A DNA stretch of 64,000 bases from Nipponacmea schrenckii (taxonomy: Eukaryota > Mollusca > Gastropoda > Lottiidae), in contig JAUJPP010000005.1 in assembly GCA_030562195.1 (NCBI GenBank), positions 28,507,106 through 28,571,105 on the forward strand, read 5' to 3'. Both the position numbers and the translations under genes were made by a program. Shown piece after piece: positions 17,145-23,086 of the stretch. Under the pieces are notes generated by a model that was given only the letters and a program-made list of their open reading frames with translations, searched no databases and was not told where the DNA came from. How positions within the stretch are numbered: position 1 is the stretch's first letter; every line of letters starts with the position of its first letter.

Positions 17145-17177
17145 GTTACAAACAATGACGTCTATAAATAACTAGAC
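17145..17177. repeat. Left target duplication and TIR of the P-type element
   Basis: GTTACAAA (17145-17152) followed by the 25-bp terminal inverted repeat (17153-17177). Similarity to the right end stops two or three bases after the TIR. Confidence 0.93.
17156..17170 (+). promoter_or_regulatory. CRE-like site and TATA box inside the TIR
   Basis: TGACGTCT (CRE-like, 17156-17163) runs directly into TATAAATA (17163-17170), about 71 bp upstream of the transposase ATG at 17241. The same pair lies inverted in the right TIR. This suggests the terminal repeat itself serves as core promoter, as known for several DNA transposons. Initiation near 17195-17200 is an inference from TATA spacing. Confidence 0.55.
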
Positions 17178-17420
17178 TGCGCGCATGTCCCAATGTTGTG
17201 GATTTTCACTCCAAACTTCCGGTGGTGTCAAGAAACCAGCATGGTGAAGACTTGCAGCGCTGTCGGATGTACAAATCGGCATCAGTCTGGATCAGGCATA
17301 ACCTTTCATAGGTATGAAAAGCAATCGTTTATTCAACAATTTTTTGTTCGATTTGAATTTGTTCGAATATTCTTAGTTTCATCGGTTTTTACTGTTTTAT
17401 TATGGTTTTACTAACTCAAG

Positions 17421-18160
17421 ATAAGGAGATAAAACACTCTATTTAAAATCCCTTCTCTCAAATTTTATACTATACTGAAAATTAAAGTACCGCACATGGA
17501 AGTAGCATGGTTATAGCTCATTAAAACTTTCTATGTTGATAAGCGCAGAAAGGAATTGAGCGTGGATAACAATTCTTGTAACATCAACGCAGTTCATATT
17601 TTTTCTGTTTGACCAATGAATTCTTTGAAAAGCAACGGATACACAATGTTATCATGTTCTTGTTGCTAATGACAATTCTTGTAACATCAACGCAGTTCAT
17701 ATTTTTTCTGTTTGACCAATGAAATCTTTGAAAAGCAACGGATACACAATGTTATCATGTTCTTGTTGCTAATGACAATTCTTGTAACATCAAAGCAGTT
17801 CATATTTTTTCTGTTCGACCAATGTATTCTTTGACAAGCAACGGATACACAATGTTATCATGTTCTTGTGGCTAATGTCAAACATCAATTTTTAGTGTTC
17901 AGAAATGGATATTTTACATACTAGATTTGATACTAGATACAATATTTTCGGTCAGAAGTCGTGGTTCTAGTAATTAAGACGATGCAGCTTGAATTCTTAA
18001 TCTCTTTAGATAATGAATTAGAATATCTGTATTCGACGTTAGATAACATTCAATTTCAGATTAATTCGGTTACGTTTACAGTTTTATCTAGGAAAGCCTG
18101 CTGTTAACAGTATTATAAAACAAATTTGCAATTTGAAACGGGAGAAACATACTGCCGAAG
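17421..18160. repeat. 740-bp copied segment inserted in intron 1
   Basis: A copy of 15979-16507, expanded by two extra 103-bp units. It sits between two copies of a 29-bp sequence (17392-17420 and 18161-18189, beginning CTGTTTTATTATGG) that occurs once in the uninterrupted intron. The flanking duplication shows that this copy is the insertion and the outer copy the likely source. It carries no poly(A) tail and no inverted ends. Confidence 0.85.
17568..17878. repeat. Three tandem 103-bp units
   Basis: Units start at about 17570, 17673 and 17776 (each CAATTCTTGTAACATCAA, then a TTTGACCAATGA-type block ending GTTGCTAATGA). The source copy at about 16120-16222 has only one unit, so the expansion arose during or after the copying. 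The last unit reads TGTGGCTAATG and matches the outer copy best at its end. Confidence 0.9.
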
Positions 18161-20119
18161 CTGTTTTATTATGGTTTTACTAACTCAAGTCTCCAGTCGT
18201 CAAGTGAGTAAATGTCATCCCGAAGGTCATTTGAAGCTAGGCCTATTAAGCCTACTTTCGGTCTATTATATATAAAAATAGTAGAGCAAGTTTGCCTATA
18301 TACATCTACATTTTGTTCTCATTTGATAGATTTTTAGATTTTCAGCTGTCCACCTTCTCGTAACGAAATGGTTAAGCCACAACCTGGCAGTGATGATAGC
18401 CAGATAGGGACATTGACAATGACTGAATGGCACCTTCCATTGGCAGGGATTGGCTCCAAACAAGAGACCTGTTTATAAAGTAAGTTTAATTTCAAATAAA
18501 TCCATGCTTATAAATTTTTGAGGCATATAAGCATATAGCTTCCATTTTATTGGTAGGCCCTTTGTAGTCTATAAACTGTAACACTGTTTTTGTGTAGTTT
18601 ATATATTACCGGTATCAAATGTAGATCAAATTGAGTACATGTAGTTGAAATATAAACATTCAGATTACTGTTACGTTAGGCCCTATCTGTTTTCCAGGTT
18701 CCATAATTTTCAATTTGTTTCTCATTTTATAGGTTTGCAGCTTATGAAGCTCTTAAAACGAAATGGCTACAAGATGTTAAACGTTTACATCCAGACACCA
18801 AGAAGCAAACAAAGTTTGATTTTTTGTGCTCAGATCACTTCAAACCAGGAGATTTTTACAAATCGAAGCACGGGACGATGGCACTTTTAAAGAAGGAGGT
18901 GGTTCCATCTGTTTTAAGTTGGAAAACCTGTCCAGAGGTATAATTATACAACACATTGAATTATTGAATTGATAGTACTTATTCATGTGCTAAATGAATA
19001 TGATTATCAGTAGGTTTCACTTGATTTCACAAAAATCCATGATGAACAATTTTTGTAGCATCTCTATATTATCTGTACTTTACAAACTATATATAAGGCC
19101 CTATGTATAAACTTTTAAAAACACTGTTTTTGTTCAGTTTATTATCAAATATAGATTAAATTTAGTACATGTAGTTGAAATATAAACATTAACATTATCT
19201 GTTTTCCAGGTTCCACATCGCACATCTGTTAATTCTCACAATAGTTTTGAAAAGCCTGTAGTAGAAGCTGGTACATCTTTTAATTCCTCAAACACAGAAG
19301 TAATAGGGAACGACTACCCACATTTTGTTGAACCTACAACTTTAAAACGGAAATATGACAAGGTCTTACAACAACTAGATACAACAAAGAAAGAACTTCA
19401 CAATTCAAAGAAAAGAGAGAAGCGGGCACGGCATTCTCTTGAAATCGTGTTAAATGACTAAATGAAAAGGCTTCTCAAATGTAAGATACTTATAAAGGTA
19501 GGTTTTTCATGAACTTTTACTGGATTATTAGCCACCTTCATTAAAGTTTCGATTTTCAACTGTCTAGTGTTCTTTAATATATGCTGGCAATTTCATATAG
19601 GGCCACTAGTCTGGAAAATAAATTCTCAAGTGTGTTTCCTGTAAAAGGCAGAGATTGCAAAGTGCAAACAATTGAATATTTTAATTAGTTTTGTTCCACT
19701 ACATTTTTTAAACTATATAAATGCCAGTATAATAGTTGATATTGTATTTGAAATTTTCATGTTATTCTAATATTGAAAAATCTATTATATACTTTCAGAC
19801 ATCCCAGTAGATATATTTAAGAGACCTTCAAATGAATATTCGACAGAACAACGACAGTTTGCCACTACGCTTTTTTTCTATGGACCACGTGCATACAGAT
19901 TTGTGAGGGAAAGTTTACACCTCCCACATCCATCAACAATCGAAGGTTAGTACTTTGTCAGGAATCTATATGGTGATACCAAATATTTGTGTTAAATTTT
20001 ACATTTGCATTGGAACACTTGACTTGAAACAAATAAATATCATATATTGACAATAAATATAGAAAAAGTTTCCTCCTAATTCCCCTGGTTTTATCTATTA
20101 CGCTTACATGCCTAAAAAA

Positions 20120-20330
20120 TTCTGTCTATAAAACTTGTGCCTAAATAAAAGTGGACCGTTGTGGACGTATATTGTCATCGCCACTAGTGGTCTGCTCGTC
20201 CATAATTAGTTTGTGAACGTGATGGCCGGCCAATGGATGCAACAGGTTTAGATAGATTTTTATGAAATTTTGCATGAAGGATTATATTCAAAAGATCAGG
20301 GTCAACTTTGAATTTGGGTATAACCAACTT
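20120..20330. repeat. Satellite-like insertion in intron 4
   Basis: The intron contains a segment with TTTTTATGAAATTTTGCATG and TCAACTTTGAATTTGGGTAT. This phrasing is close in style to the 161-bp satellite at 63.2-64.0 kb (gene-free, GATTTTGATGAAACTTGG type). It is probably a solitary relative of a dispersed satellite family; the similarity is suggestive only. Confidence 0.35.
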
Positions 20331-22714
20331 TGATGGTGTTTCAACCCATTTTTTGGGTAAGTGGGTGTATCTTGCAACTGCTTATTTATTACAGCATTGA
20401 AAGGTTTAAAGAGACATTATCATCCAGGTGGATGAGTAATATCCAGTCAAAACCAGGTTTGTCTAACCAGGTTTTAGATATGCTGAAAGAAAAAGCTGCT
20501 AAAGATCCAGTGAATTATGGTAAATGTAGTTAAATGCTGGATGGTATGTCCATACGTAAACATGTGGATTGGGGTCCCAAATATCAGGAAATGGTGGGAT
20601 TTGTTGATCTTGGAGCGGGCAGTCTTGAAAATGTTGAAGAAGCCACAGAGGGTATTCTTGTACTTGCTGTCGGATTACAAAATCACTGGAAAGTTCCTGT
20701 CGCATATTTTTTGATTAATGGTTTAAGCGCAGATGTGCAAATGGAGCTGTTGCTGTCTTCTGTTGTGGCTTTATATGATAGCAATGTGACAGTACAAGCA
20801 TTAGTAATGAATGGCCATACTACCAATTAGAGAATGGCATCTCTCCTTGGATGTTCTTTAGATGTAAATAACACCATAAGTTGCTTTAACCATCCATGTG
20901 ATGACTCTGTAAATATTCATGTATTTTTTTATGCTTGTCACCTCCTAAAAAATCTTAGAGGAACATTACATGCGTTCAAAGAATTCAAAACCACATTTTG
21001 AACTGTTAAGTGGATGGACATTGTCAAGCAGCCCAAACCTTAAGTACATCAGTTGCCTCTGCATTAATATATTTAAAGAACCTTAAAATCAAAGGTTTTG
21101 AAAATGCTTCCAGTACTGCAAAATTTGTTGCTATGGTGGACCGCTTATTTGATGTGTTCAATAGTAGATCACCTATTGGTAAAGGTTATAAGAGTCCAAT
21201 CAGACCAGGTAAGTTCAATTATATCAAAGCCTTCCTTCTAGAAACCAAAGAGGTTTTAGTTAATATGACAGACATGACAAATAAAAATATATGTGATGGC
21301 AGACGAAAGTTAAGTGTTATTGGATTTGTTGTTAACATAAATAGTATATTAAACCTTGCACAAGAATTGCTATTGACTTCAACACCTGCTCTTAGTTACC
21401 TACTGACTTACAAGCTATCTCAGGACCATTTAGAGACTTTATTTTCTGCTGTTCGTCAGTGTGGTGGTTGGAACAATAATCCATCAGCTCTTCAGTTTAT
21501 GGCAGCATATCGCTCACTCTTAAGTCATGCTGGTGTTCTTATCACAGGCTCTGAGAATGGAAATTGCAAACCTGAAGACACAACATCTCTTTTAAATATT
21601 GTTAATTGCGACAATGACGACAAACCAACACCAATTATTACTTATAATAAAGCTTTATTTGACCATTTTTACAGCAAAAATGAAATTGGGTTTAGTCCAT
21701 TTGTTGAAGGTGTCTTAGAATATGTTGCTGGTTGGGTCGTTCGTAAGGTCACATCGAAGCTAGCATGTGTTGACTGCTCCTTTGCATTGATTAAACCATC
21801 AGTTGTACAACGCTCATCAACATCCTCATCTTTGCTTATAATTAAGAATAATGGAGGACTTGTTTTTCCCTCTGATAGTGTTGTAAAAATCATTAGAAAT
21901 TGTGAACAGTATATACGTTCTACCATTAATGTTAAGAAGGTTAAGTCGTTGCAGTGGGAAAAAATAATGATTTCTCAAATGATAGCAGATCTGCCAAGGA
22001 ATGTTTTCCCAAAACTTGAAGAAAATTTTATAGACACTTCAAAGGGAATTGATACACATGAGTACATTTTACTACAATTATTATGTAAAGAATTTATCAT
22101 ATTAAGAAGAAATCACACAGTGAATTTAACCAATTTAAGTTTAAAAGGACAAGGTGTTCGGCATTGCACTAATAAAAAAATGTTGTTTCTTCATCAGTAG
22201 AAGTGTCAAGGTATTAAAGAGATTGTAAAGAGGTTTTCTAAACTTGTTTTGTGTATCAGGGACACTGAAGCATCGATTTGCACCATTATGATTTTCAGTC
22301 AGACCTCTGAGATTCTATCAATTCCACAAAAACCAACACATTCTACTAGGGATAGACCTTTGAGGGTGTTCATATGGGGATAAGCATGAGGCCTAGGCCT
22401 ATCATGTAGCCTATACGTAGACTTTATAGTAGGGTATAATCTAGTCATGTTATTATTATGTGAATAAAAAATACTTCTAAATGATTTTTTTTTCTTAAAT
22501 CTATACGGTTTCAAGATTCAAATTAATAGAATTTATATAATATTACTCGAACAAGCTTGCCCCTTTGGAGTTCCAACGGCCCGTCAAGGGTTCATATTAT
22601 TTATGTTTACATTAGAAACCATACGAGCTTGCATTGACCTAGTTGTTTTCTGCCACTACCGGAAATCAGCACTGATTGGCCATGCCGTCCTACGTAAATT
22701 GACTTGAGCGATCG

Positions 22715-22747
22715 GTCTAGTTATTTATAGACGTCATTGGTTACAAA
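22715..22747. repeat. Right TIR and target duplication of the P-type element
   Basis: Inverse of the left TIR (22715-22739), then GTTACAAA (22740-22747), identical to the left flank. Confidence 0.93.
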
Positions 22748-22926: not shown

Positions 22927-23086
22927 GATAAACGACTTTCTGTTTTAGATTTAGAGGGGGTTTATTCGATATTTAACCATGCTTGAATATACCATTAGAG
23001 ACCCTCGAACGCAAGCGGTCTCGGGATCTAATGATTCAAGCATGGTTAAATATCGAAAATCTAATCTTAAACAGAAAGTGTTTATC
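22927..23086. repeat. 160-bp imperfect palindrome (fold-back)
   Basis: Two arms of about 70 nt face each other. The outermost pair is GATAAAC with GTTTATC, with TTTCTGTTT and AAACAGAAA next inside. A perfect 23-bp inverted core (22966-22988 against 23034-23056) contains ATATTTAACCATGCTTGA. The loop is about 45 nt and includes CATTAGA/TCTAATG. No target duplication is apparent. It could be a fold-back MITE or a DNA hairpin of another origin; it lies 180 bp outside the P-type element. Confidence 0.8.

What the first reader, a model, noticed from the sequence alone, without database searches (positions are those of the whole stretch)
17145..22747. Structurally complete P-element-superfamily transposon with THAP finger and introns in an invertebrate
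Terminal repeats, target duplication, THAP C2CH finger, coiled coil, RNase H-like core and C-terminus can all be placed, so the full architecture of the family can be read from one locus. The 25/25 identical TIR and 8/8 identical duplication suggest insertion is not ancient, so active relatives may exist in this genome. P-type/THAP9 elements are patchily distributed among animals.
Basis: partly seen in the sequence, partly recalled or inferred. Interest (0 to 1): 0.75.

Follow-up and report, generated by a model that had tools for sequence, protein, structure and literature searches.

The report
Dead P-element in a P-rich genome
This is a real but inactivated copy of a known kind of jumping gene (the P-element/THAP9 family); the animal carries relatives, some of which seem to have moved recently, and their ends share a spacing pattern worth testing.

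Summary
Confirmed: a 5,587-bp P-superfamily transposon (17153-22739) with identical 25-bp inverted ends and an 8-bp duplication (GTTACAAA). It sits in a high-copy host repeat: 40 scored places match the joined flanks across the junction at 93-95% identity, and the two read base by base hold GTTACAAA once. THAP, P-type HTH, split RNase H, GTP-binding insertion and THAP9 C-terminal domains pass Pfam cut-offs. The copy is dead: at least four in-frame stops, a frame-changing deletion, and loss of the second catalytic aspartate. Identical ends do not date it: loci with only 55-56% identical transposase carry the same 25-mer. Recently mobile relatives are likely: one lineage has two 4.97-kb copies, 99.2% identical, at different sites with different 8-bp duplications and 771-aa open frames. 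Ordinary as an element; the end geometry is the interesting part.

The parts
17145..17152 (.). left copy of 8-bp target-site duplication GTTACAAA
   Evidence: single copy in the two empty sites read base by base
17153..17177 (+). 5' terminal inverted repeat CAATGACGTCTATAAATAACTAGAC
   Evidence: genome copies
17217..17231 (+). 5' subterminal motif TTCCGGTGGTGTCAA, decayed form of TTCCGGTAKGGGCAA, candidate THAP site, starts at element base 65
17241..17311 (+). exon 1: start codon and first half of THAP C2CH finger (CSAVGC)
17393..18189 (+). window-only insert of about 770 bp in intron 1 between 28-bp direct repeats (starts 17393 and 18162); holds a 103-bp x 3 tandem array at 17569-17881; siblings L045 and L046 read straight across with one copy of the repeat
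18733..18937 (+). exon 2: second half of THAP finger (CSDH) and VPSVL box
19210..19497 (+). exon 3: coiled-coil-like segment (by eye); in-frame TAA at 19459-19461
19799..19945 (+). exon 4: P-element-type helix-turn-helix, PF12017
   Evidence: (E 2.3e-18)
20428..22200 (+). exon 5: RNase H N-half, GTP-binding insertion, RNase H C-half, THAP9 C-terminal domain; in-frame stops at 20531, 20828 and 20999, about 77-bp deletion near 21030-21059, D303 position N, D339 position Y
   Evidence: acceptor placed by comparison with L040
22650..22664 (-). 3' subterminal motif TTCCGGTAGTGGCAG, candidate THAP site, starts at base 76 from the 3' end
22715..22739 (-). 3' terminal inverted repeat
22740..22747 (.). 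right copy of target-site duplication

Best explanation
A defective, formerly autonomous cut-and-paste transposon of the P-element/THAP9 superfamily that inserted into one copy of a high-copy host repeat, making an 8-bp duplication (shown). When the family was active, the THAP finger would have bound the inverted subterminal sites 39 bp (5') and 50 bp (3') inside the 25-bp TIRs; the HTH would have gripped the TIR; a GTP-dependent complex with a split RNase H (D, D, E) would have excised the element and joined it to target phosphates 8 bp apart (inferred from the Drosophila enzyme). The 5' site ends 9 bp before the start codon, so binding could also repress the element's own gene (inferred). 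This copy can no longer make the enzyme, but its ends are intact and might still be moved by a related transposase (inferred).
For: Domains above Pfam cut-offs; similarity to the solved P transposase 6p5a, E 1.6e-8 for the window C-terminal piece and 6.3e-23 for a sister frame; 8-bp TSD and CA...TG ends; empty sites; linkage of this TIR to transposases elsewhere (22 of 34); exact 8-bp TSDs at L038, L039, L040, L043 and the C11 element; subterminal motif at 65/76 whose core matches TXXGGGX(A/T) in the sister families (consensus from a passage of PMC3464256); lesions.
Against: No binding, expression or transposition data. In the window both subterminal cores deviate from the THAP consensus (TGGTGTCA, TAGTGGCA). 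The exon 4/5 join is out of phase in this copy, so the exon model is approximate. L041 and L042 have TIR pairs without matching TSDs. The C11 element carries two 3'-type ends (76/76) with an exact TSD.
Confidence: 0.95

Rival explanations
1. A domesticated THAP9-like host gene that happens to lie between transposon ends.
For: Human THAP9 is called a domesticated transposase (abstract of PMC9326536 in the listing); two other open THAP9-like frames in this genome showed no CA-starting TIR/TSD pair in the 6 kb fetched (L054, L055).
Against: Stops, deletion and a lost catalytic residue; TIRs, TSD and empty sites. Selection was not measured.
Confidence: 0.02
2. A recently inserted, near-active copy.
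For: Identical TIRs and TSD.
Against: The 25-mer is identical at loci with 55-56% identical transposase; L046 is 90-96% identical over its longer pieces; at least four in-frame stops and D303 to N.
Confidence: 0.05
3. The conserved 65/76 spacing is only shared ancestry, not a functional geometry.
For: The lineages share an ancestor and nearly the same TIR; three lineages is a small sample; no Drosophila sequence was aligned here; indels are tolerated (L003 at 56, L031/L032 at 67, L020 at 68); the C11 element has 76/76 with an exact TSD, so unequal ends may not be needed, unless it was rearranged after insertion.
Against: Spacer identity is 15-25 of 39 and 24-27 of 50 while the length is fixed; motif identity in the six pair comparisons is 12, 8 and 11 of 15 at the 5' end and 13, 12 and 14 at the 3' end; 20 of 29 distinct ends keep 65 or 76, 6 of 8 paired elements keep 65/76.
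Confidence: 0.45

Closest known systems
Drosophila melanogaster P element and its transposase (6p5a/6pe2)
   Same: 8-bp TSD, TIRs, THAP + dimerisation segment + HTH + RNase H split by GTP-binding insertion; THAP site inside each TIR with unequal spacing at the two ends (passages of PMC7776569, PMC3688188)
   Different: 25-bp not 31-bp TIR; 5,587 bp not 2.9 kb; four introns here (three in D. melanogaster, recalled); candidate sites start at 65 and 76 rather than 53 and 41; this copy is dead
Zebrafish Pdre2 / THAP9 (passages of PMC10983969, PMC7776569)
   Same: THAP9-type transposase, 8-bp TSD, subterminal inverted repeats
   Different: 13-bp TIR, 12-bp subterminal repeats with 400-bp spacers
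Anopheles gambiae P subfamilies (passages of PMC1562414)
   Same: several P subfamilies in one genome, 27-31 bp TIRs, 8-bp TSDs, 4,178-7,545 bp, small non-autonomous relatives
   Different: a different host and set of families; sequences not compared here
Galileo (PMC3688188, discussion section and passages)
   Same: P superfamily; a THAP site about 70 bp from the end
   Different: Galileo has long Foldback-like TIRs and several THAP sites
Unnamed public proteins P0001-P0006 (53-61%) and Patella caerulea P0011 (53%), identity to the L042 frame
   Same: same RNase H / GBD / THAP9_C layout
   Different: proteins only; no genomic ends examined

Membership tests
P-element superfamily | 8-bp target-site duplication | tested here: met
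   two empty sites read base by base, 40 scored places crossing the junction
P-element superfamily | short TIRs beginning CA | tested here: met
   25/25; 13-bp CATAGAGTTATAA in family D. That CA starts are typical is recalled, apart from the zebrafish TIR shown
P-element superfamily | THAP C2CH N-terminal finger | tested here: met
   exons 1+2 joined: PF05485 E 8.7e-15, profile 1-86 of 87
P-element superfamily | P-type HTH | tested here: met
   PF12017 E 2.3e-18
P-element superfamily | RNase H split by GTP-binding insertion | tested here: met
   PF21787 6.4e-28, PF21788 1.3e-19, PF21789 5.4e-20; 6p5a
P-element superfamily | catalytic D, D, E | tested here: not met
   this copy only: first D and E kept, second D is N; of 120 public relatives 117 have D in that column and 3 a gap; the sibling and families B, C, D have D. 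It is loss in a broken copy, so membership by descent stands
P-element superfamily | subterminal THAP-binding sites | tested here: inconclusive
   motif present at preferred places; binding not tested; the window's own cores miss the consensus
P-element superfamily | GTP-dependent transposition | not testable with these tools
   needs biochemistry
Active autonomous P element | uninterrupted transposase frame | tested here: not met
   stops at 19459, 20531, 20828, 20999 and a frame-changing deletion

The most novel reading that the evidence does not exclude
P-superfamily ends in general prefer a 12/23-like geometry: each end has a THAP site in inverted orientation, with the two ends offset by a near-whole number of helical turns (11 bp in lineages A, A' and B here; a 20-bp subterminal repeat at 70 versus 92, offset 22, in lineage D; 12 bp in Drosophila). 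The length, not the sequence, of the spacer would be what selection keeps, which would make unequal end pairing an ancestral, though not absolute, property of P transpososomes.
Probability: 0.3. Interest if true: 0.6.

Novelty: new member of a known kind. Interest (0 to 1): 0.35.

Why it matters
As an element it adds one more lineage to a well-described superfamily. It matters because one genome holds several P lineages of different ages, from dead to apparently recently mobile, so end architecture can be compared within one host; the recurrent 39/50-bp spacers give a testable hint that the unequal ends known from Drosophila P, likened to V(D)J signal spacing, are older than flies.

Tried and rejected
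Domesticated gene: rejected (broken frame, TSD, empty sites). TIR unrelated to the ORF: rejected by linkage. Exact inverted repeats of at least 11 bp beyond the TIR in the subterminal 700 bp of the window element: none found; the motif was noticed in the L038 ends there and followed up over all ends collected. The same motif in family D: absent (best 6 mismatches); D has its own subterminal repeat. Family C (L050, L051): no TIR/TSD pair found; one end carries TTCCGGTTAAGGGCAA starting at 77. L054 and L055: open 700- and 763-aa frames, no CA-starting TIR/TSD pair within the 6 kb fetched; an 8-bp pair in L054 was taken as chance. Window RNase H N-piece against the PDB: only weak Hfq hits (E 0.7-0.8). 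Naming the organism by a mitochondrial gene: not completed. A genome-wide count of the subterminal motif: not completed, so its specificity rests on the window background: with up to 2 mismatches 3 places on both strands, two of them the element's own ends.
Full report
What is there. The window holds a 5,587-bp element at 17153-22739 bounded by identical 25-bp inverted repeats and flanked by GTTACAAA on both sides. Joining the host flanks with one GTTACAAA gives a sequence that matches many other places in the same genome: 40 were scored of 472 candidates, all 40 at 93-95% identity across the junction, 37 after the doubling of contig C3. Both of the two fetched for reading, L056 and L057, run through the junction with a single copy of GTTACAAA. 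The element therefore sits in a high-copy host repeat and the duplication is a true target-site duplication.

Protein anatomy. Exons 1 and 2 joined give a complete THAP domain (PF05485, E 8.7e-15). Then follow an exon that looks like a coiled coil (by eye), a P-type HTH (PF12017, E 2.3e-18), RNase H N-half (6.4e-28), GTP-binding insertion (1.3e-19), RNase H C-half (5.4e-20) and THAP9 C-terminus (7.3e-10). The C-terminal piece matches the solved Drosophila P transposase (6p5a, E 1.6e-8), and an open sister frame does so at 6.3e-23. Introns with GT-AG borders have counterparts in family B copy L040; the exon 4/5 join is out of phase in the window.

It is dead. In-frame stops lie at 19459 (exon 3) and at 20531, 20828 and 20999 (exon 5). 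Against sibling L046 the window lacks 77 bp near 21030-21059, a frame-changing loss of sequence that family B also encodes, and 19 bp near 19457. The residue aligned with D303 of 6p5a (counted on the alignment; catalytic role from passages of PMC7776569 and PMC8230255) is N; of 120 public relatives 117 have D there and 3 a gap. The D339 position is Y, against D in 118 of 120, one gap and one Y; that Y is in P0001, the closest public relative, so this change alone need not be disabling. First D and E are kept. Insertion age cannot be read from the TIR: 10 of 34 TIR hits are the identical 25-mer, and some accompany transposases only 55-56% identical (C3:19204514, C7:7865974, C7:1783702). DNA identity to L046, whose right end was not found, is 90-96% over pieces of 260 bp or more and 84-90% in three short pieces, not counting the 25-bp TIR match; a forced full alignment gives 89.8% over 4,667 columns, lowered by that missing end. 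L045 holds only the 5' part, 95-98% identical over its pieces of 130 bp or more. A third family A copy appears at C9:15605835-15606937, 88-92% at protein level, not fetched.

Relatives in the genome. The TIR with up to 3 mismatches occurs 34 times, reversed control 0; 22 of 34 have a transposase match within 10 kb against 0.42% of the genome. The transposase piece finds 107 matches, many of them fragments of one element. Counts on contig C3 are doubled: its two halves give the same matches at an offset of exactly half its length (29,626,336 of 59,252,672), an apparent assembly duplication. Lineages: A (window, L045, L046), A' (L038 and others with the same TIR), B (TIR CAATGACGTCTATTATAAACTAGAC; about 58-70% aa in the main-piece matches; six copies 96.1-99.4% identical over local alignments in 15 pairings), C (about 50-52% aa; 642- and 643-aa open frames), D (38% aa; 8 rows, of which 2 were fetched). 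The two D copies, 4,971 and 4,978 bp, are 99.24% identical over 5,000 bp, lie on different contigs with different TSDs (GATGAAAC, GGTTTCTT), and each has a 771-aa frame without stops; the one scanned carries HTH, RNase H and GBD. That is what recent transposition would leave. Exact TSDs flank L038, L039, L040, L043 and the C11 element; L041 and L042, on small contigs, do not show them. The D frame starts after a first THAP exon, the C frame within the part equivalent to exon 5, and no frame was tested for expression or activity.

End architecture. I collected 29 distinct 160-bp ends from the window and loci L001-L037, which cover 30 of the 34 TIR hits; many are near copies of one another. With up to 3 mismatches to TTCCGGTNNGGGCAA the best match starts at 65 in 9, at 76 in 11, elsewhere in 4 (56, 67, 67, 68); 5 have none (both ends of a 59-bp remnant, two other tiny remnants, and L018). 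Of 8 elements with both ends read, 6 (window, L038, L039, L040, L042, L043) have 65 at the transposase 5' end and 76 at the 3' end; L041 has 65/67; the 10.5-kb C11 element has 76/76, being bounded by two 3'-type ends, and still has an exact TSD. The last is evidence against a strict rule, unless C11 was rearranged after insertion. Comparing window, L038 and L040, spacers agree at only 15-25 of 39 and 24-27 of 50 positions yet keep their length; the motif agrees at 12, 8 and 11 of 15 at the 5' end and 13, 12 and 14 at the 3' end. The core TAKGGGCA fits the THAP consensus TXXGGGX(A/T), which I saw in a passage of PMC3464256, in A' and B; in the window both cores have drifted from it. In Drosophila P the THAP sites are at 53-63 (5') and 41-51 (3') (PMC3688188 discussion); PMC7776569 gives spacers of 9 and 21 bp and compares them with 12/23 signals, but assigns them to the ends the other way round. 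Family D has a 20-bp subterminal inverted repeat at 70 and 92 that is unlike the motif. A near-whole-turn offset is thus shared, but three related lineages plus one do not prove a rule, and binding is untested.

How it most likely works. As in Drosophila P (PMC7776569 passages): THAP docking on subterminal sites, GTP-dependent pairing, staggered cleavage, integration at phosphates 8 bp apart. Shown here: TSD, TIR, domains, empty sites, motif position. Inferred: binding, pairing geometry, possible self-repression (the motif ends 9 bp before the start codon), possible trans-mobilisation.

Novelty. P elements with these hallmarks are known from flies, mosquitoes (PMC1562414 passages) and zebrafish (PMC10983969 passages), and P is among the 17 superfamilies screened in molluscs, 16 of which were found (PMC10294476 passages; I did not see P named among those found). 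I saw no paper describing a one-turn offset of THAP sites outside Drosophila in the listings of searches and the passages read of the papers named here; subscription papers and Repbase were not searched.

Noticed in passing
L048 (G000:C7:3951538), L028 (C10:5030408), L025 (C9:17302274): Tiny remnants of two TIRs fused head to head: 59 bp with TSD GTCGCAGT, 46 bp with TSD CATAGAAC, and 34 bp with an imperfect duplication (6 of 8), read by eye. They look like near-complete internal deletions or excision scars.
   Followed up: partly
L044-L045 / G000:C11:7973612-7984138: A 10.5-kb family B element bounded by two 3'-type ends (TSD ATATAACC) and holding several transposase pieces is followed after 9 bp by the 5' end of a family A element: two different P families at overlapping target sites.
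   Followed up: partly
G000:C3: The contig appears to be one 29.6-Mb sequence written twice (paired matches offset by exactly half its length), so copy counts there are doubled.
   Followed up: partly
window 17393-18189: About 770-bp insert in the P element's intron 1, with three 103-bp tandem units and flanking 28-bp direct repeats, absent from both siblings compared.
   Followed up: partly
window about 22964-23070; L018: A palindromic repeat (GCTTGAAT...ACCATTAGAGACC...GGTCTC...TCTAATGATTCAAGC) next to the element; a similar stretch lies inside the P end L018, suggesting another mobile family.
   Followed up: no
L055:4364-5641: A 1,278-bp inverted-repeat element with long near-identical arms (GAAGATATAATCGATTTTC...) and 8-bp duplication AAATATTT, not CA-starting and probably not a P element.
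   Followed up: no
L052:667-5637 and L040 5' end: GCCATTTT-type motifs (resembling a YY1/initiator motif, recalled) near the subterminal sites, possibly the element promoter.
   Followed up: no
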